From an uncultured Verrucomicrobiaceae bacterium (GTDB taxonomy: Bacteria; Verrucomicrobiota; Verrucomicrobiia; Verrucomicrobiales; Verrucomicrobiaceae), in assembly GCA_937872615.1 (NCBI GenBank), contig CALMTT010000618.1, forward strand, positions 1 to 44,539: a DNA stretch of 44,539 nt. The letters are read 5' to 3'. The first letter of the stretch is position 1; every line of letters begins with the position of its first letter. Both the position numbers and the translations under genes were made by a program. Positions 3,092-19,142 of the stretch are shown here, piece by piece. Under the pieces are notes generated by a model. The model was not told the DNA's origin. It did no database searches and worked only from the letters and a program-made list of their open reading frames with translations.

Positions 3092-3457
3092 ATGTCGAGC
3101 AACGACCAGCCCAACTTCGACGAAGAGTTCGACGCGGCCGTCGCCGAGTGGCGCGATAAACATCGGCTGCGAGAAGACGACGCGGTGATGCTCCTCGTCG
3201 AGTTGTTCCGAATCCACCAGCGGCATTGGGATGAAGTCCGACGCCGGGAGTTTCCGTCGTTTGAACAATTCCGGGCGGACATCACAAAGCTGGCGGAAGC
3301 TGCGCGGACATTTCAGGGACAATCGGCGGCATTGCTCGAAATCTTGCGAACTCAAGCGCCTGCTCACCGCGCAGCCAGAGTCACTCGTGCCGCTGCTGTC
3401 TGTGCGACCATCGCGGGGCTGCTCGCGGGTTATCTGATTGGGAGGGCATGGCCATGA
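3092..3457 (+). CDS. TraM-like small tail-anchored membrane protein
   Basis: A 121-residue protein with a long acidic, helical cytoplasmic part (NFDEEFDAAVAEWRDKHR, then FRADITKLAEAARTFQ) and one C-terminal transmembrane segment (about residues 97-117, AAAVCATIAGLLAGYLIG) ending in RAWP. A ParA-like gene four bases upstream and a coupling ATPase overlapping its end match the place of TraM in IncP-type traKLM operons. The family link rests on topology, size and order rather than recognised motifs. The next gene overlaps its last bases. Confidence 0.5.
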   Translation: MSSNDQPNFDEEFDAAVAEWRDKHRLREDDAVMLLVELFRIHQRHWDEVRRREFPSFEQFRADITKLAEAARTFQGQSAALLEILRTQAPAHRAARVTRAAAVCATIAGLLAGYLIGRAWP

Positions 3458-4944
3458 AACTCGACCTCATCCCCTTTGGTCCGATAATGCCGTCTCCAAA
3501 CCTCATCTTTGCGTTGAGGAATCCCCAACATATTATGGTCGCTGGCGGCATCCTGCTGGCGATCATCGCCGCATGGGTGTTGTTCAAGCCGAAGAAGGGT
3601 GGATACGTGGCGCGGCTCGGTGGACTGATGTGGAAGCGAACGCAGTTCTGCCGAGGATGGCTCATCACAGGGGACACGGGCTCAGGCAAAACGAGTTCCG
3701 GCATCAATCAACTGGCGCACCAGGTTTTTCAGAATGAGCCGACGTGGGGCGGGTTGTGCATTGATGAGAAAGGCGTCTATTGGGAAACGCTCACAGCGAT
3801 GGCGAAGCACTACGGGCGTGAGGGAGATCTGATTCAGTTGCGAATACGCACCGGCAGCGAGGACGCCCAATGGACACCGCAGCATCGCTTCAACCTGACG
3901 GGCGACCGGAGCATCCCTTTCACGACCTACGCGAAGTTCATTGTGGATACCGCCACCAGTCTCGGCCAAGGCGGGGATAAAGGGTTCTTCAAGAGCCAGG
4001 CGCAGACCCACATCGCCCACGCGCTCGAAATGCTCTACGAATTGAAACGTCCCGTCACGTTGCTCGGCGCGTTCGAGTTGCTGTCCGACCGCGAGTTGCT
4101 CGAAGAAGAAATGGAGAACCTGGAATCGCTGCTTGAAACGCCGCGTCGCGAGGCCGTTTACGCCCACTTTGCGAATCGCTTCCTGAACCAGCCGGACGAG
4201 CAATCCGGCGGCGTCCGCGAAACCATCGGCAACTACCTGCAATACTTTCTGACACCCGAAGTCGCCGAGGTGTTCTGTGCAGAGGAAAGCACGTTCGACT
4301 TCGCCGCGATTGACCAGGGCAAGATCATCCTAACCACGATGCCGCAGAAGTTCCAAACTGAGCGCCGCTATGTGAACACGTTTCTCAAGCTGCTGTATTA
4401 CAGCCACGCGCTGCGTCGTTTCGACCAGACCAAAGCTGACCGTGCGAAAGACAATCTGCTCATCCTGTGGGCCGACGAAGCGCAACGCTTCATGACCGCC
4501 AGCGAAGACGGCACGAGCGACTACAATTGCGTGGACGTGATCCGCGAAGCTGGGGCGACCGTCGTAGCCGCCGCCCAAAGCACGACTTCCTTTGTTCCGC
4601 CCCTCGGCAACGATAAATCAAAAGTGCTCACGTTGAATCTCCGCAACCGAATGATCTTCCGTGCCGCCGACGAAGCCGATGCCGTCCAAGCTGCCGACTT
4701 CCTCGGCAAGAAGCTCGTCGTGAAGCGCTCGTGGGGATTCAGTGCCGGCAAGCGCAACGTGAACTATTCCGAGACCGAGGAACACAAAATCAAGCCGCAC
4801 AAGCTCCGCAATCTCCGCGACCACGAGTGCGTCCTCGTCCATTGCGAACGGGGCTTCCGGCGGGTGACACTGCCCCCGCTTGAGTCGGACGGTACAATTG
4901 CTAAATGGTTCAGTAGCTGGAAGCGGCTATTCGCTGGAGGGTGA
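3454..4944 (+). CDS. Type IV coupling protein, VirD4/TraG/TraD family
   Basis: A 496-residue membrane ATPase that would bring the relaxase-DNA complex to a type IV secretion channel. There is one transmembrane segment near the N-terminus (about 27-44, HIMVAGGILLAIIAAWVL), then a Walker A motif GDTGSGKT (73-80) and a Walker B strand LLILWADEAQ (D341, E342). A later AAQSTTSF stretch resembles the sensor region of FtsK/VirD4 ATPases. It is shorter than most VirD4 proteins (about 550-700), mainly because it has one rather than two membrane segments. I chose ATG 3454 rather than 3448 because the GGGAGGG at 3440-3446 is correctly spaced from it. It overlaps the end of the TraM-like gene. No relaxase or mating-pair genes are in view, so the element may be mobilisable only or may continue elsewhere. 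Confidence 0.8.
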   Translation: MKLDLIPFGPIMPSPNLIFALRNPQHIMVAGGILLAIIAAWVLFKPKKGGYVARLGGLMWKRTQFCRGWLITGDTGSGKTSSGINQLAHQVFQNEPTWGGLCIDEKGVYWETLTAMAKHYGREGDLIQLRIRTGSEDAQWTPQHRFNLTGDRSIPFTTYAKFIVDTATSLGQGGDKGFFKSQAQTHIAHALEMLYELKRPVTLLGAFELLSDRELLEEEMENLESLLETPRREAVYAHFANRFLNQPDEQSGGVRETIGNYLQYFLTPEVAEVFCAEESTFDFAAIDQGKIILTTMPQKFQTERRYVNTFLKLLYYSHALRRFDQTKADRAKDNLLILWADEAQRFMTASEDGTSDYNCVDVIREAGATVVAAAQSTTSFVPPLGNDKSKVLTLNLRNRMIFRAADEADAVQAADFLGKKLVVKRSWGFSAGKRNVNYSETEEHKIKPHKLRNLRDHECVLVHCERGFRRVTLPPLESDGTIAKWFSSWKRLFAGG

Positions 4945-5214
4945 TGGCACAGCAGATCAAGTGTCAGTTCAGTTGGAATCCAGATTAGTTGGCAGGGGTG
5001 GATTTGATGGATTCAGCTTCCGCCGCTCTAGCCTCAGCTCTTTCCAATCAGCCAATGCCTTGCCGTGGATGATTCCGGGGTAAATGACGTGCATTATGTC
5101 CGCCTTATCTCATGGGGATGTCAGCGGATGGCATACCCCGTCGGTTAAGGTGGTCACCAAATTGCCGTGGAGTGCCGTTACAGTAGCGGCTGCGGGCGGC
5201 AACCGGATGCCAAT
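4945..5214. other. Short gap between coupling protein and ClpP-like gene
   Basis: About 270 bases without a convincing gene. I see no strong hairpin or promoter; it probably carries the promoter of the ClpP-like gene. Confidence 0.3.
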
Positions 5215-5817
5215 ATGATTACCATCAATCTCCCGATTACGGGCGCGTTCGACGCGCGAGCCATCGAAGTGGCCGACCGCTTGCAAGAAGCCAAGCCAGG
5301 CGATGAGTTCAAGTTTTGCCTTTATGACACGGGCAACGTGCTGGTGGATGCGGCACTCGCGTTTTACGAGATAGTGCGAACACGTCCGCGAGGAATCAGA
5401 GTTCATATCCACAGCCATGTGTGCCTGGCCGGGGCTGAAGTGCTGATCTGGCTGGCGGGAGACACGCGCACACTGCGATCGAACGCCTGGATTCACTTCC
5501 GCGAGTATCCTCGGCAATGGTTGGACCGTTCGGACATGCAGCAATTTCTCGACAGTCTGGAAGGGCGCGAAGTGCCGGCGGGCAAAACGGCGTTTCAGGA
5601 GAATTATCTGACGGCGGAGCGACTGGTGAAGAAACAACTGCCGCCGCACCTGCTGAATCGGCGCGTGTGGGCCGGCGAGCTGGCGGAGTGGAAGATCATA
5701 GAACCAGCGATGCGGACAGCGAAAGGGGTGATGACAGCCGGTCCGGGCAAAGCGAAACCAGTTGCGCCCACGCCGACGAAGGTCACCGGCAATCAAACGC
5801 AGATGGCGTTGTTTTGA
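5215..5817 (+). CDS. ClpP/crotonase-fold protein lacking an obvious catalytic serine
   Basis: A 200-residue protein. The N-terminal part (MITINLPITGAFDARAIEVA, strand-helix), VHIHSHVCLAGAEVLIWLAG (63-82) and the strand ending WIHF (H94) follow the ClpP/SppA layout. In ClpP the nucleophile lies nine residues before the glycine ending the helix, in a G-x-A-S-M-G context. The matching position here is glycine (LAGAE) with no serine nearby, while a histidine is kept where ClpP has its catalytic H. The protein may therefore be an inactive scaffold or use another residue. I prefer ATG 5215 over an in-frame GTG at 5167 because the fold begins right after it. It ends 12 bases from the convergent minus-strand operon. 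Similar ClpP-like genes occur on mobile elements; its role here is unknown. Confidence 0.65.
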   Translation: MITINLPITGAFDARAIEVADRLQEAKPGDEFKFCLYDTGNVLVDAALAFYEIVRTRPRGIRVHIHSHVCLAGAEVLIWLAGDTRTLRSNAWIHFREYPRQWLDRSDMQQFLDSLEGREVPAGKTAFQENYLTAERLVKKQLPPHLLNRRVWAGELAEWKIIEPAMRTAKGVMTAGPGKAKPVAPTPTKVTGNQTQMALF

Positions 5818-5829
5818 CCGGCGCTCCGG

Positions 5830-6432
5830 CTAATTGAGCGGGTGAATCCGCGCGTGCATGGCTTTGGCGATATGCGGAGAAGTCGTTTGCAACTCGGTGG
5901 CGAGTCTCAACAGTGCCGGATATTCATCTAAGCCGCCGCCAAGTCGCCAGACCAAGCTTTCGACCAATGAGCAATCTTTGCTGGCAACCGCCATGTCAGC
6001 GGCCTTGGTAAACCACGCTTGGCGAATTTCCGAGGTTGTGGCCAACGGCAACAAATAGAAAATCACTACGTCCACAAACCGGGAATTATCCGGACAAGAT
6101 TCCAGCCAGCGGTGCAAAAGTTGGTTTGGCAAGTCGCTGCCCCTGAGCATGGTGAAGGCAACGGTAAGATGCCCATCCCAATGGTCGAGGTGCAGAAGCT
6201 CTGACAGCGAAAGATTTTCGAGTTCTTCGGCGAGATGGGATTTTACTCCGGGCAACTCCATTATTTCGTGGCACCACATCCCGCTGGGAAATCCACCGTC
6301 GGGGAATGTTCCGTGCGCTTTTTCAATCGGCTCGATGAAATCGCCAACGAAGCGGATGTAACATTTGGCGCAATAGGGGCGGCAGTAGCTGAAGTCACGC
6401 GCGCGGGCGAAATCGAGAAATCCTTGGTTCAT
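5830..6432 (-). CDS. Hypothetical protein with an N-terminal Cys motif
   Basis: A 200-residue soluble protein at the promoter-distal end of the minus-strand operon; its ATG overlaps the stop of the WYL regulator gene (6429-6432). Residues 15-30 hold CRPYCAKCYIRF (C-x3-C-x2-C), which could bind a metal together with a later Cys. The rest is predicted helical with repeated helix pairs (LSLSELLHLDHWDGHL, FYLLPLATTSEIRQAW), reminiscent of HEAT-like adaptors. I do not recognise the family. Close coupling to the regulator suggests a partner or adaptor of the GHKL/SNF2/WYL set. Confidence 0.6.
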   Translation of the reverse strand: MNQGFLDFARARDFSYCRPYCAKCYIRFVGDFIEPIEKAHGTFPDGGFPSGMWCHEIMELPGVKSHLAEELENLSLSELLHLDHWDGHLTVAFTMLRGSDLPNQLLHRWLESCPDNSRFVDVVIFYLLPLATTSEIRQAWFTKAADMAVASKDCSLVESLVWRLGGGLDEYPALLRLATELQTTSPHIAKAMHARIHPLN

Positions 6433-7427
6433 GGTTTGGGCTTGTAGCGTTCATCAAGGGTGCGGCCAATTTCGCGGAGGCGGGTGGCGAGGGCCTGTGG
6501 GCGGACGACGGTGGCGTGCGTGCCCCAACTCAAAACCCAGCGCTCGGCTTCCTCGATGTTGTTGAGACGGAGACGGAGGCGGAGCTGTCGGCGGGGGAGT
6601 TCCGTGATTTCCTGGCTGGCGTGCCATTTGCGTCCGCGGATCAGGTCCGCGCCCCACGAATCGAAATCCACCACGATCTCGTAATCCGCATCGCCCTTGA
6701 ACACGGTGAGACTGCCTTTCAAGTATTCACTGAGGTTGAACTTCTTGGGGATGGTGAAGCGTTCGGACGTAATCTCCGGGGATTTGAGGCGCGGCAGGGC
6801 GAAGGTGCGCATGGCCTGCCGCTTCACGTCGAAGGCGAACAGATACCAGTGGTTGTCCACGCAGCCGAGATGATAGGGATGCACCAGCCGGGGCTGATGC
6901 TTATCGGCGTCGAGATTGCGGTATTGGAATTTCAGGACGCGCCGTTCCTTCAAGGCGCGCGTGAGGATTTCAAATGATTCGAGGTCGGTGTCCTCCGGCG
7001 CGAAGGGACGGAAGGAGAGCGCCTCGTCGAGATTGCCGAGGGAATACTTGGTGGACGAATCCAACTGGCCGGTGAGTTTGCGAAATGCGATAGCGAGCGG
7101 ATGCTCGAACGGCGTGCCACGGTATTGAGCGATGGCCTTGTGGGCGACCAGCATGGCGAACACTTCAGATTCGGTGAAGGGCATCTGCGGGAACTGGTCT
7201 ACCGCCTTGGTGTAGTAATAGCCGTTTTGCTGGACATCAAACTCCAGAGGCAGTTTCAGCCGGCACTTCATGAAATCCACATCGCGCATGATGGTGCGCC
7301 AAGAAACTTCAAACTCCTTAGCGAGCACGTTGCAGTTGGGAAATGACTCTTCCTGAACGAGCTGATGGAAGCGCATCATGCGCTCCCATGGCGGGCGTGT
7401 GACGGCTTGGGGTTTGGTCTTGGCCAT
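6429..7427 (-). CDS. WYL-domain transcriptional regulator (YafY/PafBC type)
   Basis: A 332-residue protein with an N-terminal winged helix (about 15-75; WERMMRFHQLVQEE, then LAKEFEVSWRTIMRDVDFMK as the recognition region), a central WYL domain with HPYHLGCVDNHWYLFAFD (about 180-200), and a C-terminal WCX-like extension (VVDFDSWGADLI...). This is the standard architecture of WYL regulators, which sense nucleic acid or nucleotide ligands and often control defence genes. Here the gene lies downstream of the SNF2 gene (8-base gap), not at the operon head, and its stop overlaps the next gene. It may sense damage or phage-derived ligand and act on the operon promoter, or act as a component of the system; which of these holds cannot be told. 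Confidence 0.85.
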   Translation of the reverse strand: MAKTKPQAVTRPPWERMMRFHQLVQEESFPNCNVLAKEFEVSWRTIMRDVDFMKCRLKLPLEFDVQQNGYYYTKAVDQFPQMPFTESEVFAMLVAHKAIAQYRGTPFEHPLAIAFRKLTGQLDSSTKYSLGNLDEALSFRPFAPEDTDLESFEILTRALKERRVLKFQYRNLDADKHQPRLVHPYHLGCVDNHWYLFAFDVKRQAMRTFALPRLKSPEITSERFTIPKKFNLSEYLKGSLTVFKGDADYEIVVDFDSWGADLIRGRKWHASQEITELPRRQLRLRLRLNNIEEAERWVLSWGTHATVVRPQALATRLREIGRTLDERYKPKP

Positions 7428-7435
7428 AAATCAGT

Positions 7436-10198
7436 TCAGGCTGAGGTGGCAGCTTTTGCGAGGCGAACAGCGCAAAGGAGCGTGATACCCGCCGCGCCCC
7501 GGGCGAAATTGTCGCGGTTCATCGCACATTCCTTAAGCACTTGTTGCGCTATTTTGCGGGCGGGAAGACTCTCCGCCTCGGTGAGACTGGAGCCGGAAAA
7601 CGGCACAGCGGCGGCGTTGGCAATCACCGCAATGGCATCGAGGGGAGTAATCTGCTTGGTTTCGCCAGCGTCGCTCAGGTGGCAAACGACCAGCGAATCT
7701 GGAGACGGGATGCGACGGCTTTTACCCATCCAGCGAAGCGCATATACAAGCAGCCAACCCGGCGGCAAAGGACATGTCTGCTCCGGTGCCAGTGAAAAGG
7801 CATTGGGTCCCGGAGCGGCGTGAAGCGCGGTTTGGAACAACCAATCGGTGAATGGCTCACCAAAGCCGGCCAGAACCGGCCGAATCGGCTGACCCCGCAC
7901 GGTGCCGAGGTCCTGGCCACGAACGGCGGAATAAGTTTCCCGGTCAAACACAACATGCATGGTGCGGGACGGGCGGAAAATCGGATCGCGGAACGCGGCG
8001 GGCAAATCGAAGTTGAACACCTCCGGAACGAACTGGTTCTCGCTATTGCGGGTTTCACGCAAGCGGATGCCCTGTGCTTCACAAGCCAGACGGAACGCCA
8101 GTTTGAACTGCGCGCTGCCAAGCGAGGGCTTCAATCTGGCCCCGTTGTCTGCCATGCCTAAATCGGAGCCGAACAGGTCGCGCCACCGCGACATGGATTC
8201 CAACGCCGACCTGATCCACGAGTCCATCTGTTCATCCGTTACGCGGTGTCCGGCCTGTGACGCCGCGAACAACTTGGCGGCATCAACCTGCTCCGCAACC
8301 TGGCCGAGGATCATCTCGCGGTAGTCTTCGAGATTGCCCGGCCCGGCCGCTGACATCGTTTGCTGGATTACATCGAGGCGCTCCAGAAGACGGGTGGAGA
8401 TATGGTGATCCCAAGAATCGGGGACGCGGAGATTGAAGACATGCACCACCTGCTTTTGACCGTAGCGGTCAAGGCGGCCAATACGTTGCTGCAAACGCAT
8501 CGGATTCCACGGCAAATCATAATTGATCATCAAATGACACGCCTTTTGCAGATTGATGCCCTCGCCGCCGGCTTCGGTGGAAACCATGAAACGCGAACCG
8601 TGCTCAAATCGAATGCGCGCGGCCCGGCGACCCTCCATCTCGACGTCGCCGTGAATCACCTCCACCTTTGACCCCGGAAAGAGGGTCGCAATCCGGTTCG
8701 TGAGCATGTCCTGGGTGGTGCGATATTGCGTAAAAAGGAGAACTTTCGCGTCCGGTTCGGTTCGTCCGAGTTCGGCGAGAAGGTCAGAACAGGAATGCCA
8801 CTTGGAATCCGATGGCAAGCTACGCAAACGGGTCAATAATGTATCGAGCAGGATGCGTTCATTCTCGAAGAAAACCTTGGTCGGCAAAGCGAAGTCGCGA
8901 ACTTCTTCGTTTGGCTCGTCATCATCGCCCTCCAGGAGTTCGGAAAGCCGTTCAACGCGGCCCTGTAGGGAATCGAGTCGCCGTTGCAAGGCCCGTTCCA
9001 ACGCAGGCCAACTACTCGCGGCCAGTTTGTGAAACGTGTGCATCACCAACTGAACCACCAGTTGAGTGCCTCGGTCGGAGTCACGGACGAAGTCGAGGCT
9101 CTTCAAGATGTATTCCGTCAACAAGCGCGACACCTCGGTTTCTTCCACAGTCCAGCGCACGTCGATGGTGGTGGCCGTGTGGCCCTTGAAAAGAGGTTTG
9201 CCATCCCAATCCACCGCACGCGATTTCGGTGTGCGCGTGAGCGTTTCAACCAGCGCAGGCGTCTGTAGTTGCGCGGCCACAGGCCGCTCGCCGGGTTTGA
9301 ACAAATCCGGTCGGGCCAGGTGCAGCAAGTAAAGGAAGCGCTCGTCGTCACCCTGATGGGGCGTTGCGGACAAAAGCAGCAGCCGGGGTGAGCGTGGGGT
9401 GTTGTCCGCATTGGCCACGTGCCGAATGAGGCGACCGGCGACGAGGAATTCCAGCAACCGGTAGTTCGAGGTTTTTTCGAGCTTCTGGCTGAGGAATCGG
9501 CGCTGGGCCGTGAGCCGGTGGGCCTCGTCGCAGACAACAAGATCGAACATCCCGACCCGAGCGAGGAGTTCGCGGTATTCGTCCCGCTTCAAGCGGTCAA
9601 TCGGGGCGATCACCAGAGGCTGGGTGCGCCAGTTTGATTCCAGCTTGCCCTGAAAGTCCGTGCCGAGAATCGTGAAGTTCAAATTAAAGTGTTCGTCCAT
9701 CTCGTCCTTCCACTGGAGGGCAAGTCCGGCCGGGCAGACGACCATGATCCGCTGGGGCGGCTCCCGGCGCATCAGGCAGGTAATCAGCAAGCCCGCCTCG
9801 ATGGTTTTGCCTAAGCCGACATCGTCGGCGAGCAAATGGCCGAAGCGGTCCGCGGCCAGCACCTTGTCGAGCAGGAAGGCCTGATGCGGCAGCGGCTGAA
9901 CGGCGGCCTTGGTGAAGCCGCCGGTCAGATTGTTTTCGCCGATGATCAGGCCGGCGGCCAACTTGCGTTTGAAGACCTCAAGTTCACCCCACGCATGCGC
10001 TGTGGCATCCGCCAACGCATCTTGCACCTGAGCGACCTCGTTCGGAGCGACGATTACGAGCTGGTCCAGGTGATCAAAAGACACCTGCAAGCGGGTATCG
10101 CCGAAGGCGTCTTCCTCGACATAGCGCACAAGGCCGAAGCCATATTCCGGATGCTGCCGATGAATGACGCGGTCGCCTGGCTTGAGTGAAAGAGTCAT
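7436..10198 (-). CDS. RapA-like SNF2 ATPase
   Basis: A 920-residue SNF2-family translocase. Residues 1-60 (LKPGDRVIHRQHPEYGFGLV) form a small beta-barrel like the N-terminal domains of RapA and CarD-type proteins. Motif I DDVGLGKT is at 125-132, motif II DEAH at 224-227, motif III is SATPHQGD, and the second RecA domain ends with RIGRLDRYGQ. The C-terminal 300 residues are not recognised. Such enzymes use ATP to move along duplex DNA, usually displacing or remodelling protein without unwinding strands. It starts 5 bases after the stop of the giant GHKL gene and ends 8 bases before the WYL gene, so it is almost certainly co-expressed with them. It is distinct from the SNF2 gene at 24867 on the other strand, which lacks the RapA-type N-terminus. 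Confidence 0.85.
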   Translation of the reverse strand: MTLSLKPGDRVIHRQHPEYGFGLVRYVEEDAFGDTRLQVSFDHLDQLVIVAPNEVAQVQDALADATAHAWGELEVFKRKLAAGLIIGENNLTGGFTKAAVQPLPHQAFLLDKVLAADRFGHLLADDVGLGKTIEAGLLITCLMRREPPQRIMVVCPAGLALQWKDEMDEHFNLNFTILGTDFQGKLESNWRTQPLVIAPIDRLKRDEYRELLARVGMFDLVVCDEAHRLTAQRRFLSQKLEKTSNYRLLEFLVAGRLIRHVANADNTPRSPRLLLLSATPHQGDDERFLYLLHLARPDLFKPGERPVAAQLQTPALVETLTRTPKSRAVDWDGKPLFKGHTATTIDVRWTVEETEVSRLLTEYILKSLDFVRDSDRGTQLVVQLVMHTFHKLAASSWPALERALQRRLDSLQGRVERLSELLEGDDDEPNEEVRDFALPTKVFFENERILLDTLLTRLRSLPSDSKWHSCSDLLAELGRTEPDAKVLLFTQYRTTQDMLTNRIATLFPGSKVEVIHGDVEMEGRRAARIRFEHGSRFMVSTEAGGEGINLQKACHLMINYDLPWNPMRLQQRIGRLDRYGQKQVVHVFNLRVPDSWDHHISTRLLERLDVIQQTMSAAGPGNLEDYREMILGQVAEQVDAAKLFAASQAGHRVTDEQMDSWIRSALESMSRWRDLFGSDLGMADNGARLKPSLGSAQFKLAFRLACEAQGIRLRETRNSENQFVPEVFNFDLPAAFRDPIFRPSRTMHVVFDRETYSAVRGQDLGTVRGQPIRPVLAGFGEPFTDWLFQTALHAAPGPNAFSLAPEQTCPLPPGWLLVYALRWMGKSRRIPSPDSLVVCHLSDAGETKQITPLDAIAVIANAAAVPFSGSSLTEAESLPARKIAQQVLKECAMNRDNFARGAAGITLLCAVRLAKAATSA

Positions 10199-10203
10199 AT
10201 CGT

Positions 10204-13200
10204 TCAGTTTGTCAGACCATAATGCAGAAGCGGGATATCATAGTCCTTTAGCAACTCACTACCGGCCTCGCCGTCATTGGCGATGCGTTCGTAAAGACGC
10301 TCGCTGGTTTCAGCCAGGGAAAGGAAATCCGCACGACTAGAAAGCTCAGCCTCAATCCAACCAATTTGTTGGGCGGCGTGCCGAACGGGTGTGCAGACGA
10401 AAAACGACAGACGATCCAGGCTGGGACTCTTAAAGACTCCAATGCGCCGGAGTTCCCGCACGAGAAAGAACAACGGTGATCCGGCGCTCTGGCCGAATAC
10501 TCCGACCCAAGGCGCTTGTCCGGCTAGTTGGCCGCTCCGCAGGAAGTTGATCAATTCGCCGTTCCGAGAGGGATTTGATGCCAATTCCAACAACACGGAA
10601 GGGAACTCGTTCTCCCAGACCATTTGATGGATTTTGCGCAGGTCATAGAAAACTCGTCGCCAGAAATAGGCGTTCTCACCAGAGGCTGTGGCGTTGCTAA
10701 ATGGCCGCCGAATCAGGTCTTCAAATAGGGAATCTGCGCCATCGGCAAACTTCGGGCCACTGGTGCGCTCCCAGAAATCGCGTCCGTCGAGTTCTTCCGC
10801 CCAATACTTGCGCACTTCCGTCACCCTTCGGCCTGCTGACATGAGACAAGCCAGGCCGAAGATTCGATACCAAACTGACTTTCCCTCTGGCTGGTCGGCC
10901 TTGAGCAAATCAGCTTCCAATTTCCCAGCGCGCGAAATGTCAGGTGTCACATCTGATGGGTAAATCAGTGCCCAGTTTGCGCCATCAAGTGTGTATTCAT
11001 GGAGGGGCTTTTCTTTGCGTGTCCACCAAGCGAGCAAATCAGAAACACTCCACTCCTCAATGACAGGCGGTGGGATAACACCGCCGTCTGGCGGGGCAAC
11101 CGGGCGGAGCTTCTCTTCAATAATCCGACGTGCCCGCTCCAGTTCTGCAGCTTGCTGCGCCGGTAGCCGAGTAGCCAGCTGCTGAAATTCCGCCGTAGCC
11201 ATGTCTGCGTTGATTTGCCGCAGTAATTGCGATGCCGGTGCGAGCCGCCCAACAATCGCATCAAAGCTTTGTTGCACTTGTGCATCCCGAAGAGCCTTTG
11301 GCAGGAGCCCGTCAATGTGAAGGTCGATCCAGTCGTCTGTCCCAAACCGCCATTTTTTGATAAAGGCTTCGATACGCCTCAAAAAGGTGGTCGGGAATTT
11401 GAGAGAGGCTAAGCTCGCAAGACCACCCTTGTGCGGTATGCGGGAGCAAAGGATTTTTGTGAAACGCGCATGCTCTTTGATGAGGGATTCACAATGACCT
11501 TCAAAACGCTGGCGCAGCACCGAGTCTCCATCGTGCAGGTTCAGAGCTTCAGCCCAAGCAATCCATCGGTCTTTTGCGGTGTGGGCAGCCAAGTCGCTTT
11601 CACAAAGGTCAATTGCGAGTTTGAGGCAGGCGGCAAACACTTCTTCGTTTGCAGAATTGTTGCGAATACCCAATCGGCCGGGCTCGGCTTCAAAATCACC
11701 GTTCACCAGGATGTGCAGCGGAAATTCCTCTTCTGTCTCAAAGGTCAGCCGCACCTTACGCCAGTCGTCCTCCAGCTTGAGGGGCAATCCGTTCGCATCC
11801 ACCCGCAAAGCCACGGAGAAACGTTTGTTATTGGGATGTTGAACCTCGCGAGTATGACCGTGATGCACCAAGAAACGCTCCAGTCTTGCCGGGTGCGCCT
11901 GTCTGACCAATAGTTTCAACCAGTTGCCGACTGTTCCATCTGCCGAGCGTTCCCACTCCCAAACCCAATGATCAAATTGCAACCGAACTAAGTTTGTCTT
12001 GGACAAGAAGACGAACGATGACGGATTGAACAAGGTCAGTGGCGACTGGTCGCCATCGGTTCGCGAAAGCTTCAACAGTGACTTGGCATCGGTTGCAGAG
12101 CACCGGAATGTGAAGCTGGTCGTCTGACTGAATTCAGCCTGCAATCTCGGCGGATTCGCAGGGTTTAGCAGAAGCATGTCCTGGATCGTAAAACGATATG
12201 CACCGCTGACGACTTCAACAGCATCCGCCACCGTAAAAATGGATTTGAATCCACGATTGAAGCGGCCAACCCAGCCCTCTGTTGGTGGAGCTTCCGCACT
12301 AGGAGTCCGGACAATCAAACTAATGTCATTGCGTTCTTCCCCGGTTTTTAGCGTTTCGTTGAATGGCCGACCGCGATGTCTTGCGATCGCCTGCCACACC
12401 CGTCCCTGCACTGGCGGCCGAATGACCAACTCGAAGCCGCACGTCTTGGGCAACTCATCCGCCATGCTATCATAAGCGCTTTCCGCGTTTTGAAGTAATT
12501 CGCGGATGACATGGTATTTCCGGTAGCCGAGATCTGTAACCTCGGTTTTCAGCAACGTGGCTTTGACTTCATCACGGAACTGACCGTAAACATCCGCGTG
12601 CGACTCGTTTCCCGCCTGCCAAATCTGTTGGAATCGTTGAAATGCTTCATCAGGCCGGGCGCGCTGGCTGTAAAGAGCCAAGACTTCAGTGAATTGGCGG
12701 TCTTCCGCTTGGATGACCGCACGGTTTGTGTAGAGGTTGCCGTCCTTAATGGCAAATGGCGCGTCACGCAGCTCCGCCACGACGTCTTCACCTCGCATCC
12801 AGCGGGCCAAAATATCACTGCGGCATCTCAAAATATTTCCGCCAGCAGATTGCAGCAGAGTTTTGAATAATGGATCGGCTTGGGCTTCGGCATCCACCTG
12901 CTCTTGGGTAATCGGCAAGGGATGTCCGGGAATATCAACTTGGACTGTGAACTGGCTGGCTTGCAGGCTGGCTTCCGCAATTGCGGGAATCTTTAGCAAT
13001 GGTGCTGGAAGTTCCTGGACGCGAAGCCATTTGCGTTTGGGGTGTTGAAGCAATGGCAGATTTGCCAGATCATCCCCCGCCAACACCTTCGCCGGATCGG
13101 CGGCTTGGTGATTCAGCAAATCCTTTAGTAAAACAGTGGTTTTGCTGGTTAACCCCACGCTCCAGTTGCCTCGCAAAGTTGTCGGAGTCGCAATGCAAAG

Positions 13201-15954
13201 TTCGTTAAACGCGTTGATCTCATCCGGAGCGAGGTGGCGATCTGCCCATTTATGATACGCCGCCAGTAACATTGAAGCCGCTTCCCGTTTTTTGGATGTA
13301 TCCAATTCGCGTGGGCCGATGATGGTAAGCCTTTGTGGATCGAATTCGCCTGCCTCGCGAATGCATTCGTCTGCAAATGAGGTCAGCCAGAACGGGGCGG
13401 ATGCGTAGTGGCCGGAAAGCGCCAATACCGTTCGCGTATCCTTCGGAAGTTCCGGCGAAAGCAGTCGTCCCTCTCCCAGCTCACTGGCCCGCTCACGAAG
13501 CACAGACTTGATGGCCTGTTTTTCGGAGTGCTGAACAATCGCCTCCCAGCGGGTTGGGAGATTTCCCCGGGTGTTTCTGTGGGCATCGCTGAAAACCTCT
13601 TCGAAGGGCTTCGTGACGGCGATGTGCCCTGGCGGCAGGTTCATTCCCTTTAGGATTTGTTCAGTGAGCGCTTTCGAAAGCTTCTCCCTTAGCCGTTTTT
13701 CCACGGCGTCCTCCCAAGCTTCCCATAAACCCCACTTGCGCAGCTTTTCTTCAGCCTGGCGCAGGGCGTTGTAATGGGGCACGCCACCTCGATTCCATGA
13801 GCGCACTACTCCGTGGAAACACTGGGGCGCAGTCGTGTCCGCCAACCAAATCTCGTCGAGCCTGACCCATCCCGGACCACCATCTTTGATGCGGAGGAAC
13901 TCGAAAACCGTTTTTCGAATTGAAGTTGTGCAGGCATCACGTTCCAGCCCCCAGAATTGCTCGCCGTGCTTTGCCCATTGCTGCTCTGTCGAGAGGATTT
14001 CCGGAATCCGCTGCCACTTGGGATTGAAAACCGGCGAAGACAGGCCTTTGAGGACAAACCGCAATTGTCCCCAGAAAAACGACGTCAACCCGTGCGGATT
14101 CTGATCGGTCTGATTCAGCCAGCTGCGCAGCGTATCGAACGTTCGATGCCACGCCTCCGAAAGTTCACAGCCTCCCCTTTGCTGACAAATGGAGGCCAAC
14201 GTAGCCGGGCCATCAGCAGTCTGGATCGTGATGTGCTCGGCTATCTCCTCCAGCGTCTCGGGGTCAATATCCTCAATCGTTAGCAGCGCGGTGACCAATT
14301 TCTGCTGAGAGTCATCGCTGTGGCACTGCTGAGCAGCTTTTAAGAAAAAATCTCGCAGGAGCGCATCCCCCATCGGTTGGAGTTTGAAATCCATCGCGCC
14401 GGTTGCATTCACAATGGGAAACTCGGCACTTAACCCGGTCAGGCACGCGCACAATTCGACCCAATTCTTTCGCACCTGGTCTTTTGGAAAAAGCCGAACC
14501 GTCACGGCCTTGTCAGCACGACATAATGTTCCCCAAACCGTTTTAAGAAGTGGGCGGCTTCTGACTTCCGCCAGCAGGGCTTCCCAGGCGATTTTCGCCC
14601 ATCGGTCTCCTGAACCGACGCCGTCTCGAACCAAATCTTCGATTCGCCAATTCTCATGTCGCCGGTCGGCATGCTGTTCAAGCCAATCCGCGAAAGCTTT
14701 CACCGCTCTTGTGATTTGCCCCTCGACAGACGGTGCAAGATTCGGATTCCAGTCGTCCCGCGCCAAATTGGGTTGGAGTTCGATGTGCAGGTGCAACCGG
14801 AACGGCCAGTTGACCTTGTTGAGAGGAAAGAATGCATAGGCAGCGCCCTCTTTGAGGCCGAGACCTTGCTCGTCACCCGCCCGCTCCACGCGCAACTTGA
14901 AATCCGAATCCGCATGAAGGGCCAGTTGCCAGCGGTCTCCTTCGCAAATACCCCTGAGTCGCCAGAATCGTGAATTGGATTTCCGGCCGTCCGGCAAGGT
15001 CGTGGCCAGTGTGACCTTCACGGCTTCCACTGACCCGGGAATGCCGTCCTCCTCCGCAACCCTCGACTCACTCATCTTGAGCACGTTTGGTCCAACCTGA
15101 ACCGTCCTCAGCCACGGCAAGAAGATGGGGTTCAGCTCATACAACTCGTGCGACTGCCCTTGGATTCGGGAAGCAACTTCTCGGCGTCCTTCATCGTGCA
15201 AATGGAATGCGAAGAATGTGCCGCGATTGCCCGTGCCCAGCCGGGAGGCAAGCGGCTGCAATTCTGATGGCAAATGTGCGATCGCCTCGGGTGTGCAAAA
15301 TCCACTGAACTCCGGGCGCATCAAGTTCGGATGAAGGCGCTCTCCCACTTGCTCAAGCTGGCGGAGAATCCTTTGCCTCGTTGCCTCGTTCGGAAATGAC
15401 TGTTCTCGTGACGGCGCGGTGATGGGCAATCGGAAGGAAAACTTCGATTCTCCAGCCCAAGACTGAACAAACACCTCGTCCGCAATTCTGAAACTGGACT
15501 TAAAGCCGACGCCAAACTGGCCGATCACTTGCATGAGCGGCAGGCCTGGATCAAAATGTCGGAAGAACCGGCAGAGACCGATTTGATTGAGCGGCGTCAC
15601 TTTGCGGCCGTTGTTGGCAAATACGAGCCAGTTGCCATGAAGCATGACGCGAATTTCCGCCTCTTTCATGTCGGCGGCGTCATTCGCATTTTGCGCCAGC
15701 TCGGCCAGATAGTTGGCCGCGAGTGCGCCACTGCCGATCAGAAGGCTCTTAATCGCCAGGCGCTCCGTGCCACCGGGATTGTTGAGTTGAAGCAACCAAT
15801 CCCCGTAGATGGCATCACTGCGCTGCTCATCTGTCGGCAGCCACAGCAAGGCTTCTTCGAGCTTCTCCCAGGACTCAAAATGCTCTTCAGCTAGTGCATC
15901 TGGCACTTGGCCGCGACACGCTGCTTTATACGCATTGGGGTGGAAGATGGGCAT
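10204..15954 (-). CDS. Giant protein with two GHKL (HSP90/sacsin-type) ATPase modules
   Basis: At 1916 residues this is the largest protein of the minus-strand operon. The first GHKL module has an N-box ELAQNANDA (85-93), a nucleotide-loop segment FANNGRKVT (about 112-120) and a G2 glycine loop IGQFGVGFKSS (144-154), as in HSP90/sacsin-type ATPases. A second, diverged copy has ELLQNAESA (1152-1160) and GRFNRGFKS (1230-1238). The 500-residue regions after each module are unrecognised, as is the C-terminal 300 residues (GLACLMSAGRRVTEV, FEDLIRRPFSNA). GHKL ATPases dimerise on ATP and clamp or remodel their clients; MORC/MutL-type members are known in restriction-linked operons. The linked SNF2 gene suggests an ATP-gated clamp on DNA. 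The gene begins 29 bases after the CBASS membrane-protein gene. It has no visible nuclease motif. Confidence 0.8.
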   Translation of the reverse strand: MPIFHPNAYKAACRGQVPDALAEEHFESWEKLEEALLWLPTDEQRSDAIYGDWLLQLNNPGGTERLAIKSLLIGSGALAANYLAELAQNANDAADMKEAEIRVMLHGNWLVFANNGRKVTPLNQIGLCRFFRHFDPGLPLMQVIGQFGVGFKSSFRIADEVFVQSWAGESKFSFRLPITAPSREQSFPNEATRQRILRQLEQVGERLHPNLMRPEFSGFCTPEAIAHLPSELQPLASRLGTGNRGTFFAFHLHDEGRREVASRIQGQSHELYELNPIFLPWLRTVQVGPNVLKMSESRVAEEDGIPGSVEAVKVTLATTLPDGRKSNSRFWRLRGICEGDRWQLALHADSDFKLRVERAGDEQGLGLKEGAAYAFFPLNKVNWPFRLHLHIELQPNLARDDWNPNLAPSVEGQITRAVKAFADWLEQHADRRHENWRIEDLVRDGVGSGDRWAKIAWEALLAEVRSRPLLKTVWGTLCRADKAVTVRLFPKDQVRKNWVELCACLTGLSAEFPIVNATGAMDFKLQPMGDALLRDFFLKAAQQCHSDDSQQKLVTALLTIEDIDPETLEEIAEHITIQTADGPATLASICQQRGGCELSEAWHRTFDTLRSWLNQTDQNPHGLTSFFWGQLRFVLKGLSSPVFNPKWQRIPEILSTEQQWAKHGEQFWGLERDACTTSIRKTVFEFLRIKDGGPGWVRLDEIWLADTTAPQCFHGVVRSWNRGGVPHYNALRQAEEKLRKWGLWEAWEDAVEKRLREKLSKALTEQILKGMNLPPGHIAVTKPFEEVFSDAHRNTRGNLPTRWEAIVQHSEKQAIKSVLRERASELGEGRLLSPELPKDTRTVLALSGHYASAPFWLTSFADECIREAGEFDPQRLTIIGPRELDTSKKREAASMLLAAYHKWADRHLAPDEINAFNELCIATPTTLRGNWSVGLTSKTTVLLKDLLNHQAADPAKVLAGDDLANLPLLQHPKRKWLRVQELPAPLLKIPAIAEASLQASQFTVQVDIPGHPLPITQEQVDAEAQADPLFKTLLQSAGGNILRCRSDILARWMRGEDVVAELRDAPFAIKDGNLYTNRAVIQAEDRQFTEVLALYSQRARPDEAFQRFQQIWQAGNESHADVYGQFRDEVKATLLKTEVTDLGYRKYHVIRELLQNAESAYDSMADELPKTCGFELVIRPPVQGRVWQAIARHRGRPFNETLKTGEERNDISLIVRTPSAEAPPTEGWVGRFNRGFKSIFTVADAVEVVSGAYRFTIQDMLLLNPANPPRLQAEFSQTTSFTFRCSATDAKSLLKLSRTDGDQSPLTLFNPSSFVFLSKTNLVRLQFDHWVWEWERSADGTVGNWLKLLVRQAHPARLERFLVHHGHTREVQHPNNKRFSVALRVDANGLPLKLEDDWRKVRLTFETEEEFPLHILVNGDFEAEPGRLGIRNNSANEEVFAACLKLAIDLCESDLAAHTAKDRWIAWAEALNLHDGDSVLRQRFEGHCESLIKEHARFTKILCSRIPHKGGLASLASLKFPTTFLRRIEAFIKKWRFGTDDWIDLHIDGLLPKALRDAQVQQSFDAIVGRLAPASQLLRQINADMATAEFQQLATRLPAQQAAELERARRIIEEKLRPVAPPDGGVIPPPVIEEWSVSDLLAWWTRKEKPLHEYTLDGANWALIYPSDVTPDISRAGKLEADLLKADQPEGKSVWYRIFGLACLMSAGRRVTEVRKYWAEELDGRDFWERTSGPKFADGADSLFEDLIRRPFSNATASGENAYFWRRVFYDLRKIHQMVWENEFPSVLLELASNPSRNGELINFLRSGQLAGQAPWVGVFGQSAGSPLFFLVRELRRIGVFKSPSLDRLSFFVCTPVRHAAQQIGWIEAELSSRADFLSLAETSERLYERIANDGEAGSELLKDYDIPLLHYGLTN

Positions 15955-15983: not shown

Positions 15984-16934
15984 TCATGACACGCTTGATG
16001 ATACTTTGTTTCCGTGCTGCTCAAGGGAGCGCAGGGCTTCCTTCACCATCTCTTCAGCCTTAAACTCCATCTGCTGCTGCTTGCGCTTACGCAGAAGATG
16101 ATAAACCCAATCGAAAACCAAGGGACTGCGCGAGCGGTTATCGAAGAGGGCGTCTTGCACTAGCTGGCTTTGATTCAATGCCTCGGCATCGTCGAGCCGC
16201 CGTTCCATCGCCTGTCTCCAAAGCGCCTCGACCGCCGCGAGACCGCGCTCGTCGGCCTGGATAGCGTCGCGCTGGGAAATAATTTCGCGCAGTATCCACA
16301 CGATGGCGGGTGCGAGCGGGACATACACCGTGAGAATCATCTGTTGCACTGTGTCGCCGCGCACAAGCGCAATCAGAAAAATGGCAATCGCGAGGACGCT
16401 CAAGATTGCAGTGAGAGCGCCGCGCACGCGGTCGCGCTGGCGCAAATCCCACCAAAGGCTTGCGCGTTGACAGATAAGCCGAGCAAGCGACAGAGGCAGT
16501 GCCTTCACTGACGGTGGATACCAGTCGGGGAGTCCGTTCCGTGCTTTAGGGCTGCGAAGCTGATCCTGGGCGTCGGCCAAGATGTCTTCCGAGTCAACAC
16601 GAGGACCGCAACGCAACGCGCGCCACGGCAGCTCAAAGACTGCGCAATCAAACATCTGCTGGACCACTGCACCGCGCTTTTTGAACCGAGCAAGCGCACG
16701 TGTGAGGCAAAGGACGTCAAACAACGTGACTGTGATAGAAAAAAACGTGAGCCAAACTTTCCACGTCGGCTGCCATGCCATCAGCAGGGCGCTGGCAAGT
16801 GCCGCAGGAACAGTGAGCGCAAACTGGACGGCCATAAGGCGCTTGGCGCGGCCATAAATGCGACTAGCGGCAGCGAGCAAATTGATTTGCTCATCTTCGT
16901 TTTGCTTTACGGCAATGTTGCACCCAGTTACCAC
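15984..16934 (-). CDS. S-4TM family membrane effector of CBASS
   Basis: A 316-residue protein with four hydrophobic segments in two pairs: about 33-54 and 58-79, then 172-191 and 197-216, separated by a soluble loop with a conserved-looking LPDWYPPSVKALPL stretch. This is the layout of S-4TM family putative pore-forming effectors (Pfam S_4TM), which accompany CD-NTases and are thought to open the inner membrane when they bind the cyclic oligonucleotide. A basic, helical C-terminal tail (HLLRKRKQQQMEFKAEEM) follows. The GTG start at 16934 overlaps the CD-NTase stop by seven bases, consistent with translational coupling. Loss of membrane integrity would stop phage growth by cell suicide. The immediate neighbour makes this assignment strong; the ligand specificity is unknown. 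Confidence 0.8.
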   Translation of the reverse strand: MVTGCNIAVKQNEDEQINLLAAASRIYGRAKRLMAVQFALTVPAALASALLMAWQPTWKVWLTFFSITVTLFDVLCLTRALARFKKRGAVVQQMFDCAVFELPWRALRCGPRVDSEDILADAQDQLRSPKARNGLPDWYPPSVKALPLSLARLICQRASLWWDLRQRDRVRGALTAILSVLAIAIFLIALVRGDTVQQMILTVYVPLAPAIVWILREIISQRDAIQADERGLAAVEALWRQAMERRLDDAEALNQSQLVQDALFDNRSRSPLVFDWVYHLLRKRKQQQMEFKAEEMVKEALRSLEQHGNKVSSSVS

Positions 16935-17803
16935 GGGAATTTGGTGTTAAAGACGATGTCCCACTGACGGCGAGCCTCGGCCAGGTCGTTACGCAGGTCA
17001 GCGGAAACTGCGCTCTCTGCGTGATCGCGTGAGTTGATCACCGAGGCGAGCGCCCGCTCACGCTGACTAGCAGTTTTGACGGCGGGAATGTTGCCGGCGA
17101 TACCGTAAGGATCACGCATGGCGCGGCACTCGCGCCGAGCGAGGCTGCGCAAAATGTCCAACATGCAGTCCGCATAAGATTTCACCCCTTTGCAGACTTC
17201 CTCGTAGGCGAGCACCATCTCAATGTGAAACGATGAAAGCGGAATACGCGGCTCGCGACACTCACGCCAGAATTTCATAAGTTGGGCGACATAAATCATT
17301 TTGCTGCCACTCGCTGTGTTGGCTTCAGATAGATATGCGTCATAGAGACTGGGACTGGTTTGCATCCAAGCGCCAGAACCATCGGGAATCAGATAAACCG
17401 GCCACTTCTCCTTATACATGGAGTCAAAGACACCAGGCACAACATCCACGTGACGACCATCTGAAAAGGAAACGGCAATCGCGATACCGTCCTTGTAAAC
17501 GTTGCTGTTGGGATAGCGCTCCGCCAATGCCACTCGGACCTTTTCCAGGGCCGTGTCGGAATTGATGAGATTGTCGCCCCACGTAAAGACTGCCTTTCGG
17601 AAGACCGCCAGCAGGTCCGTATCGCTGAAGCCACGAATGGATGTGCCGCGGGCGAAGCTGCCGATGGCGAAACACTTGGAAACCTCGAACTCTGTTTCTA
17701 GTCGGGCGCGGATTGTGGCAAGATGCTGGCGCGCTGCTTGATTTTCTGATTCGAGTGGCTGAATCCGGCTGATGAGCAACTGGAATGATTCACTGATGTT
17801 CAT
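16928..17803 (-). CDS. CD-NTase (CBASS cyclic-oligonucleotide synthase)
   Basis: A 291-residue nucleotidyltransferase. The catalytic core shows the G-S motif FAIGSFARGT (45-54), the paired aspartates SDTDLL (D61, D63) and a third aspartate in RHVDVVPG (D120), which together bind the two metal ions. A helical C-terminal half (YVAQLMKFWRECREP, DILRSLARRECRAM) follows, as in the nucleotidyltransferase plus OAS1-C-like layout. Such enzymes sense phage infection and make cyclic di- or trinucleotides that trigger an effector, here the S-4TM protein in the overlapping next gene. No Cap2/Cap3 (E1/E2/JAB) or HORMA genes are nearby, so this is a minimal, type I-like CBASS. The SD GAGGTG (complement of 17809-17814) is well placed, and a promoter candidate lies about 40-65 bases upstream. 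Confidence 0.9.
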   Translation of the reverse strand: MNISESFQLLISRIQPLESENQAARQHLATIRARLETEFEVSKCFAIGSFARGTSIRGFSDTDLLAVFRKAVFTWGDNLINSDTALEKVRVALAERYPNSNVYKDGIAIAVSFSDGRHVDVVPGVFDSMYKEKWPVYLIPDGSGAWMQTSPSLYDAYLSEANTASGSKMIYVAQLMKFWRECREPRIPLSSFHIEMVLAYEEVCKGVKSYADCMLDILRSLARRECRAMRDPYGIAGNIPAVKTASQRERALASVINSRDHAESAVSADLRNDLAEARRQWDIVFNTKFPW

Positions 17804-18835: not shown

Positions 18836-19027
18836 ATGAAAGAACGCTGGTTGTCGGTAGCGGAGATTGCCGCGCACTTGGGCGTCAATCCTGACACGAT
18901 CTACAAGTGGATAGCACGAAAGCAGTTGCCGGCACACAAAGTTGGGCGGCTGTGGAAATTCACGGCGAGCGAAGTGGACGCTTGGGTTCGGGCCGGTAAA
19001 GCTGCAGGAGACGATCACAATGATTAG
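18836..19027 (+). CDS. Excisionase/MerR-type HTH DNA-binding protein
   Basis: A 63-residue protein made almost entirely of a winged-helix HTH_17-type domain: WLSVAEIAAHLGVNPDTIYK, then WIARKQLPAHKVGRLWKF and a helix SEVDAWVRAG. This is the domain of phage excisionases and of small helix-turn-helix genes often placed at the head of restriction-modification and defence operons. ATG 18836 is chosen over upstream starts because the domain begins there and a GGAG precedes it. It lies directly behind a 20-bp palindrome and 134 bases before the giant helicase, so autoregulation of the operon is the simplest guess; a role in excision of a mobile element is the alternative. Confidence 0.8.
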   Translation: MKERWLSVAEIAAHLGVNPDTIYKWIARKQLPAHKVGRLWKFTASEVDAWVRAGKAAGDDHND

Positions 19028-19142
19028 GTCAATTGCACCAGGCAGCCTCCGCCGCCATCACACGAACAGGCAAGATGAACGCATCCTGCGAATGTTGGCT
19101 CCGCTACCGCCCAGGATTGCCGTGACGGATGTGAAGGAATAA
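19020..19142 (+). CDS. Possible 40-residue Arg-rich peptide
   Basis: ATG 19020 overlaps the HTH stop by eight bases and is preceded at good distance by AGGAG (19006-19010), better than the signal of the giant helicase itself. The product, [20 protein letters not shown] followed by [20 protein letters not shown], is basic and short. It could be a genuine small protein or only a coupling peptide that carries ribosomes towards the helicase start 19 bases further on. It has no recognised domain; a chance reading frame remains possible. Confidence 0.35.

What the first reader, a model, noticed from the sequence alone, without database searches (positions are those of the whole stretch)
5830..15954. 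Candidate new system: GHKL giant + RapA-like SNF2 + WYL regulator + Cys-motif protein
Seen: four genes with gaps of 5 and 8 bases and one ATGA overlap. Known: WYL proteins commonly regulate defence genes, and GHKL (MORC/MutL-like) and SNF2 ATPases occur in restriction-linked operons. I do not recall a named system of exactly this composition, and no nuclease is evident, so how DNA or cells would be harmed is unclear.
Basis: partly seen in the sequence, partly recalled or inferred. Interest (0 to 1): 0.75.

Follow-up and report, generated by a model that had tools for sequence, protein, structure and literature searches.

The report
Hsp90-like giant plus helicase defence pair
In lake-dwelling Verrucomicrobia, a giant Hsp90/sacsin-like protein is always paired with a DNA-translocating helicase of the BREX family, and the giant's gene appears to be swapped between otherwise near-identical loci, which suggests a two-gene antiviral module with an exchangeable sensor rather than the four-gene system first proposed.

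Summary
The four ORFs are real and the domain calls (GHKL, RapA-like SNF2, WYL) hold, but the unit is wrong. The conserved core is two genes: a ~1900-aa double Hsp90/sacsin-type ATPase and a BrxHII/RapA-like SNF2 helicase, adjacent in all 12 checkable loci, so far only in Verrucomicrobiota (about 2% of genomes sampled in the class). The WYL gene belongs to the host conjugative element: in the nearest relative, 57-89% identical copies sit beside four unrelated defence cassettes. The Cys-motif protein has no detectable homologue. Settings vary: CBASS, inside a type-2-like BREX operon, beside methyltransferases, YprA helicases or GmrSD genes, or alone. Window and relative L019 share 94% SNF2 and 91% cyclase identity but only 40% in the giant; AU tests show the giant's gene was exchanged. 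The giant's C-terminus is all-helical with no detectable nuclease; a tentative structural match is the HhH-GPD glycosylase fold. Best reading: an antiphage module with a swappable ATP-gated sensor on a conserved dsDNA translocase. Function is inferred, untested.

The parts
10204..15954 (-). Giant double GHKL (Hsp90/sacsin-type) ATPase, 1916 aa: module 1 about aa 78-410 (E85, N89, N114xG116, G145-F-G148-x-G150), weakly conserved middle about aa 440-1100, module 2 about aa 1130-1565 (E1152, N1156, H1193xG1195, GRFNRG 1230-1235), conserved all-helical C-terminal domain about aa 1630-1916
   Evidence: NCBIfam P_loop_sacsin 2.6e-21; Pfam SACS 1.1e-5, below cut-off; motif residues invariant in relatives; model of aa 1081-1916 matches Hsp90/TRAP1 N+middle domains and sacsin SR1
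7436..10198 (-). BrxHII/RapA-like SNF2 dsDNA translocase, 920 aa, Walker A GLGKT (aa 128-132) and DEAH (224-227) intact
   Evidence: Pfam SNF2-rel_dom 2.9e-17, Helicase_C 6.5e-19; PADLOC BrxHI/BrxHII 2.1e-91; RapA in PDB; adjacent to the giant in 12 loci
10207..11127 (-). C-terminal domain of the giant: the part shared by relatives whose N-terminal parts differ; candidate coupling/DNA-binding domain
   Evidence: Alignments A4/A10; AlphaFold model pLDDT 83, all-helical; VIA-align top rows HhH-GPD glycosylases, Z 8.8; no significant Foldseek or sequence match
15984..16934 (-). S-4TM CBASS effector (SMODS-associating 4TM), same operon, 29-base gap to the giant
   Evidence: Pfam S_4TM 1.3e-84; PADLOC CBASS 4TM effector 2.7e-93
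16928..17803 (-). SMODS CD-NTase (CBASS cyclase), first gene of the operon
   Evidence: Pfam SMODS 5.8e-21; PADLOC cyclase 9.9e-59; 91% identical copy before the pair in L019
6429..7427 (-). HTH-WYL-WCX regulator; belongs to the element's defence hotspot, not to the pair
   Evidence: Pfam WYL/WCX; 89, 89, 78 and 57% copies next to other cassettes in G534
5830..6432 (-). Orphan 200-aa CxxxCxxC protein, ATGA overlap with WYL; no detectable homologue
3448..4944 (+). TraD/TrwB-like coupling protein of the carrying conjugative element, convergent with the operon
   Evidence: Pfam TrwB_AAD_bind 4.8e-14; 84-88% copies beside the WYL copies in G534

Best explanation
A two-gene antiphage module. The giant is an ATP-gated sensor/clamp: two Hsp90/sacsin-type ATPase modules joined by a fast-evolving middle, ending in a conserved helical domain. 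That domain couples it to, or presents DNA to, a BrxHII/RapA-type SNF2 motor. When the giant recognises invading DNA or a phage protein, its ATPase state changes and licenses the SNF2 translocase to act on the phage DNA, stripping bound proteins or blocking replication and transcription. Cutting, if any, is done by partners: nucleases of neighbouring BREX, ARMADA-like or methyltransferase systems, or host nucleases. Different giants can be plugged onto nearly the same SNF2 gene, so specificity probably resides in the giant. Shown here: the pair, its co-conservation, intact ATPase motifs, absence of a recognisable nuclease, defence setting in most loci, and exchange of the giant's gene against conserved neighbours. 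Inferred: antiphage function, the sensing role, physical coupling through the C-terminal domain, and the block on phage DNA. WYL regulates the cargo of the mobile element, and the CBASS pair is a separate system in the same operon.
For: GHKL-SNF2 adjacency in 12 loci: window, L018, L019, L020, L022, L023, L024, L025, L027, L033, L115 and a decayed copy in L116; ATGA overlap in L020, L024, L025, L027. In five of these no defence neighbour was recognised (L018, L023, L025, L027, L115), so the pair can stand alone. Defence settings: CBASS (window, L019), inside PglX-PDDEXK-[pair]-DUF6079-PglZ-BrxD-BrxHI (L020), methyltransferase upstream (L022; also L026/L036, where the contig ends inside the giant), DpdE-like helicase and two GmrSD (L024), DruE-like helicase and UvrD (L033). 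Exchange: mostly 79-91% DNA identity on both sides, 48-64% across the well-aligned parts of the giant's gene, breakpoints at its ends. Giant tree: window with L115 (100/99), window+L018+L019 rejected p=7e-6; SNF2 tree: window with L019/L030/L018 (100/100), window+L115 rejected p=1e-7 (also 98). In L022 and L024 the N-terminal ~2100-2280 aa differ while the C-terminal domain and SNF2 are kept. Two of the nearest plasmid relatives of the SNF2 sit in DUF499 BREX-related operons.
Against: No experiment. Hsp90-like ATPase plus RapA-like SNF2 could in principle be a chaperone/transcription-recycling pair. In five loci no defence gene was recognised next to it. All relatives found are in Verrucomicrobiota, mostly metagenome-assembled genomes; the window's own bin has 7.4% contamination. 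Several copies are broken (L019 giant lacks about aa 62-895; L115 giant split; L116 decayed), which fits costly accessory genes but reduces the number of intact examples. Physical contact of the two proteins was not modelled.
Confidence: 0.55

Rival explanations
1. The pair is an accessory (sensor-motor) part of larger restriction systems of the BREX/DISARM/ARMADA family and needs their methyltransferase, PglZ or YprA partners to work; stand-alone copies are remnants.
For: Pair inside a type-2-like BREX operon with no PglW seen on the contig (L020/L031/L032); Eco57I-type methyltransferase upstream in L022 and L026/L036; YprA-like and UvrD helicases after it in L033; SNF2 itself is of the BrxHII/ArmA kind; the window carries a YprA-BrxHII-MTase operon on the other strand.
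Against: In the window and L019 the pair is in a CBASS operon; in L025 and L027 it is intact between housekeeping genes with no MTase, PglZ or BrxC. No single partner recurs in all loci.
Confidence: 0.25
2. A six-gene composite: CBASS cyclase and S-4TM effector, giant, SNF2, WYL and Cys protein work as one pathway, the giant/SNF2 feeding or tuning cyclic-nucleotide signalling.
For: All six genes are co-directional with gaps of at most 29 bases; the same CBASS-giant-SNF2 order in L019 and a WYL remnant after SNF2 in L030, same MAG.
Against: CBASS absent from the pair in all other loci; cyclase plus S-4TM is a complete type I CBASS by itself; WYL travels with unrelated cassettes.
Confidence: 0.08
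3. Non-defence chaperone or RNA-polymerase recycling module (Hsp90-like + RapA-like).
For: Fold matches to Hsp90/TRAP1 and RapA; some copies lie among housekeeping genes.
Against: Patchy (7 of 384 class genomes), carried on a conjugative element with many defence genes, sometimes decayed, and the giant's gene exchanged between loci.
Confidence: 0.1
4. One reading: the four genes GHKL, SNF2, WYL and Cys protein form one new system.
For: Tight packing, ATGA overlap; WYL remnant directly after SNF2 in L030.
Against: Cys protein without homologue; WYL absent beside the pair in the other loci and present beside four unrelated cassettes.
Confidence: 0.03

Closest known systems
BrxHII helicase of type-3 BREX, BREX-related (DUF499) helicases, ArmA of ARMADA
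   Same: SNF2 core, RapA-like family, similar length (~920-940 aa); best PADLOC family BrxHI/BrxHII; two near plasmid relatives checked are DUF499-operon helicases.
   Different: Partner is a giant double-Hsp90 ATPase instead of BrxC/DUF499 + methyltransferase; no MTase, PglZ or BrxC in the window operon.
PglW, sensory hub of type-2 BREX
   Same: In L020 the pair stands in a PglX-BrxC-PglZ-BrxD-BrxHI cluster where no PglW is seen; both are large multidomain proteins (role of PglW from PMC12839542).
   Different: PglW has kinase/NERD/wHTH domains; the giant has two Hsp90-type ATPases. Replacement is an inference from one locus.
Tiamat (TmtA)
   Same: Large protein with a related N-terminal GHKL ATPase (PADLOC TmtA 2.6e-15, aa 85-166).
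   Different: Similarity is limited mainly to the ATPase stretch; no full-length match.
VcSduA (Shedu with N-terminal GHKL ATPase)
   Same: A GHKL ATPase used as regulator in phage defence (PMC12137116).
   Different: VcSduA carries its own PD-(D/E)XK nuclease; no nuclease found here.
BrxR/CapW-type WYL regulators
   Same: HTH-WYL-WCX protein in a defence island, with CBASS, BREX-related and CRISPR cargo (PMC9122601).
   Different: Here it is the distal gene of the operons and tied to a traD-like gene; operator not found.
Type I CBASS with S-4TM effector
   Same: SMODS cyclase and S-4TM genes head the same operon.
   Different: A separate, complete system; not homologous to the pair.

Membership tests
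Sacsin/Hsp90-type GHKL ATPases | Bergerat ATP-binding motifs (E/N box, N/D-G box, GxFGxGF box) | tested here: met
   Module 1 all motifs invariant; module 2 has E/N box and GRFNRGFKS, with H in place of N/D in the second box; NCBIfam P_loop_sacsin 2.6e-21
Sacsin/Hsp90-type GHKL ATPases | Hsp90-like N + middle domain fold | tested here: met
   Model of aa 1081-1916: TRAP1 4j0b Z 11.8, rmsd 7.1, 343 aligned; sacsin SR1 5v47 Z 11.1, rmsd 3.4, 164 aligned; Foldseek Hsp90 3.7e-6
BrxHII/RapA-type SNF2 helicase | SNF2 motor with Walker A/B and relation to RapA/BrxHII | tested here: met
BrxHII/RapA-type SNF2 helicase | N-terminal TUDOR and C-terminal degenerate REase + alpha/beta domain | tested here: inconclusive
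   C-terminal profile has no PDB sequence match; structure of this protein not predicted
BREX (any type) | PglZ, BrxC/PglY and PglX in the operon | tested here: not met
   None on the window's operon; met only around the pair in L020
DISARM/ARMADA | YprA-like helicase and methyltransferase in the same operon as the SNF2 | tested here: not met
   Absent from the minus-strand operon; a separate YprA-SNF2-MTase operon is on the plus strand
Tiamat | Full-length TmtA homology | tested here: not met
   Best PADLOC stretch is aa 85-166 against model 47-128 of 1302
CBASS | CD-NTase plus effector | tested here: met
   For 15984-17803 only: S_4TM 1.3e-84, SMODS 5.8e-21; this is a neighbour, not the pair
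WYL defence regulators (BrxR/CapW-like) | HTH + WYL + WCX next to defence systems | tested here: met
   WYL and WCX by Pfam; the N-terminal HTH rests on PADLOC WYL models covering aa 15-312; contexts
WYL defence regulators (BrxR/CapW-like) | Inverted-repeat operator at the regulated promoter | tested here: inconclusive
   No convincing repeat upstream of 17803
HhH-GPD DNA glycosylases (C-terminal domain of the giant) | EndoIII/MutY fold | tested here: inconclusive
   VIA-align top 12 rows all HhH-GPD, best 1orp Z 8.8, rmsd 3.9, 183 aligned; but Z under 13 for a helical model, no Foldseek E-value support, profile-profile not above shuffles
HhH-GPD DNA glycosylases (C-terminal domain of the giant) | Catalytic Lys/Asp of bifunctional or monofunctional enzymes | tested here: inconclusive
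   By an eye-made, non-significant alignment the positions read Q and C/S/N
Effector nuclease (PD-(D/E)XK, HNH, PLD, HEPN) in the giant or SNF2 | Recognisable domain or conserved catalytic set | tested here: inconclusive
   No Pfam, NCBIfam or PADLOC nuclease domain hit in the matched stretches; giant C-terminus all-helical with no invariant His; middle of giant and SNF2 C-terminus not modelled

The most novel reading that the evidence does not exclude
A new class of immune module with a plug-in sensor: Hsp90-type giants are exchanged as whole genes or whole N-terminal parts in front of one conserved coupling domain and SNF2 motor, and that coupling domain is a repurposed HhH-GPD (EndoIII/MutY-like) fold that flips out and inspects bases, so the module may recognise modified or damaged phage DNA.
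Probability: 0.2. Interest if true: 0.78.

Novelty: new variant of a known kind. Interest (0 to 1): 0.55.

Why it matters
Hsp90/sacsin-like giants are common in bacterial defence neighbourhoods but few have a mechanism. This pair ties one to a defined motor of the BREX/ARMADA family and gives a clean natural experiment: near-identical SNF2 and CBASS genes with different giants between them. If specificity follows the giant, it shows how an ATP-driven chaperone-like protein can serve as a swappable pathogen sensor, and it adds a part to the BREX-type toolkit. The WYL result also warns against counting a hotspot regulator as a system component.

Tried and rejected
A genome-contig scan with the giant alone found nothing; only the C-terminal profile worked. 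Scans of viral contigs for the C-terminal domain and Cys protein found nothing; a scan for the SNF2 gave only general helicase relatives, at most 34% identical. Plasmid and phage tblastn with the giant gave only generic sacsin-type ATPase matches. Hidden nuclease in the giant's C-terminus: all-helical model, no invariant His for HEPN, no sequence match in PDB. HhH-GPD by sequence: hhalign against 27 glycosylases from relatives not above block-shuffled controls, so kept as structural hint only. WYL operator: no shared inverted repeat. Promoter/terminator scan at or below shuffle expectation. L026 and L033 as one split locus rejected: the tails differ. Literature searches for sacsin/Hsp90/GHKL with SNF2 in phage defence found no described match.
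Full report
Observation. The four minus-strand ORFs are present exactly as described, with 5- and 8-base gaps and an ATGA overlap. Domain calls are right: WYL+WCX, SNF2, and two sacsin/Hsp90-type ATPase stretches in the giant. The operon is longer than reported: a CBASS cyclase (16928-17803) and S-4TM effector (15984-16934) lie directly upstream on the same strand. The window sits in a metagenome-assembled genome whose relatives are Verrucomicrobiota (G000, contig C618, contamination 7.4%).

Which genes belong together. The giant was searched in relatives, then a profile of its C-terminal domain was used in GTDB genomes, the phylum and the class. In every locus where the contig continues, the next gene is the SNF2: window, L018, L019, L020, L022, L023, L024, L025, L027, L033, L115 and a decayed copy in L116. 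The two genes overlap as ATGA in L020, L024, L025 and L027. In the class sample 7 of 384 genomes have the domain, 5 of 331 good-quality ones.

WYL. In G534, the MAG nearest to the window at this locus, WYL copies of 89, 89, 78 and 57% identity lie beside four different cassettes: a helicase operon (L044), an SF1-helicase-containing operon (L045), a DUF499 BREX-related cassette (L046) and a Cas3 cassette with WYL divergent from it (L047). L044 and L045 also carry the same traD-like gene (88 and 84%) convergent with the WYL operon, as in the window. So WYL is part of a defence hotspot of the conjugative element. In L030 (G534) the SNF2 is followed by the first 35-43 codons of WYL and then unrelated DNA, a remnant of the window's arrangement. 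WYL regulators that accompany diverse defence systems are known (PMC9122601).

Cys protein. No homologue in 143 related genomes, 11 genomes that include the pair-bearing ones, viral contigs, plasmids or family libraries.

Context of the pair. L020 is the most telling: PglX (PADLOC 1433 bits), PD-(D/E)XK protein, giant, SNF2, DUF6079 (BrxC/PglY-like), PglZ, BrxD (1.5e-193), BrxHI (2e-279). PglW, the usual hub of type-2 BREX, is not seen on this 25.7-kb contig. Other settings: Eco57I-type methyltransferase upstream (L022, L026/L036), DpdE-like helicase and two GmrSD genes (L024), a DruE-like helicase and a UvrD helicase (L033), CBASS (window, L019), a terminase-like gene nearby (L018, recognised by eye, no Pfam hit), or no defence neighbour recognised (L023, L025, L027, L115).

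Exchange of the giant. Between the window and L019, DNA identity is mostly 79-89% in the CBASS genes (one 150-base block at 70%), 48-64% along the well-aligned parts of the giant's gene and 83-91% from 150 bases into SNF2; the changes fall at the ends of the giant's gene. At protein level SNF2 is 94%, cyclase 91%, giant 40%. Trees agree: the giant of the window groups with L115 (100/99) and the clade window+L018+L019 is rejected (p=7e-6); the SNF2 of the window groups with L019, L030 and L018 (100/100) and window+L115 is rejected (p=1e-7) (an earlier six-row test agrees). L019's giant lacks about residues 62-895, so that copy is probably broken, but the comparison uses the part that remains, and L018 is full length. 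In L022 and L024 most of the N-terminal part is replaced by a different double-sacsin region while the C-terminal domain is kept.

Structure. The model of residues 1081-1916 shows an Hsp90-like N+middle unit (TRAP1 Z 11.8 with rmsd 7.1 over 343 residues; sacsin SR1 Z 11.1 with rmsd 3.4 over 164) and a separate all-helical C-terminal domain. That domain alone was modelled at pLDDT 83. Foldseek gives no significant match. VIA-align ranks HhH-GPD DNA glycosylases in all top 12 places (1orp Z 8.8, rmsd 3.9, 183 aligned; the twelfth, mouse OGG1, Z 5.9); the first unrelated row, a designed protein, is also at 5.9 over 115 residues, and rows after 1xg7 (5.1, a glycosylase-fold protein by my own knowledge) fall to 4.3. 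For a mostly helical model a Z below 13 can be chance, and profile-profile comparison with 27 glycosylases is no better than shuffles. I treat it as a lead. No nuclease domain was found in either protein; the middle of the giant (about 440-1100) and the SNF2 C-terminus were not modelled.

Interpretation. The most likely function is a two-gene antiphage module: giant as ATP-gated sensor, SNF2 as the DNA motor, with specificity in the giant. The function, the coupling and the action on phage DNA are inferred. The SNF2 is of the BrxHII/ArmA kind, known from BREX type 3, BREX-related and ARMADA systems, so the pair is filed as a new variant of a known kind, not as a member of BREX or ARMADA, whose defining partners are absent from the window's operon. 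The strongest rival is that the pair is an accessory of such systems; solitary intact copies (L025, L027) speak against strict dependence.

Limits. All relatives are Verrucomicrobiota, found by pattern-based scans and samples; wider distribution is not excluded. Many are metagenome-assembled contigs. No newer defence catalogue than PADLOC 2.0 (2023) was at hand.

Noticed in passing
window 19162-32002 (+): DruE-like YprA helicase (2.1e-103), DpdE/BrxHII-like SNF2 (DpdE 2.2e-246) and Eco57I/DrmMI-like methyltransferase in this order match the gene order described for ARMADA type I (PMC12458937).
   Followed up: partly
window 34475-40772 (+): OLD/Gabija-like ATPase-TOPRIM protein, calcineurin-like phosphoesterase and SMC/Rad50-like ATPase in a row: looks like an OLD protein plus an Mre11/Rad50-like pair.
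   Followed up: no
window 40801-44133 (+): 1110-aa SF1 helicase with C-terminal MTES_1575/Vsr-like nuclease domain; PADLOC best hits Mokosh MkoC/MkoA.
   Followed up: no
L044, L045, L046 (G534) and window 3448-7427: A conjugative element with a traD-like gene, small variable genes and a WYL regulator forms a repeated defence hotspot with unrelated cargo in one genome.
   Followed up: partly
window 5167-5817 (+): 216-aa protein without a Pfam hit; by eye it resembles a ClpP/SppA-type protease with the catalytic serine region altered.
   Followed up: no
window about 18836-19030 (+): Small helix-turn-helix (excisionase/AlpA-like) ORF just before the YprA-helicase operon, read from the printed sequence.
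   Followed up: no
L018:16159-17391: Terminase-like protein a few kb after a GHKL-SNF2 pair, recognised by eye only (no Pfam hit); the pair may also travel on phage-like elements.
   Followed up: no
L116 (G680:C1 about 2050000-2060600): Decayed GHKL and SNF2 fragments in order: a whole pair lost by frameshifts in a complete-looking genome.
   Followed up: no
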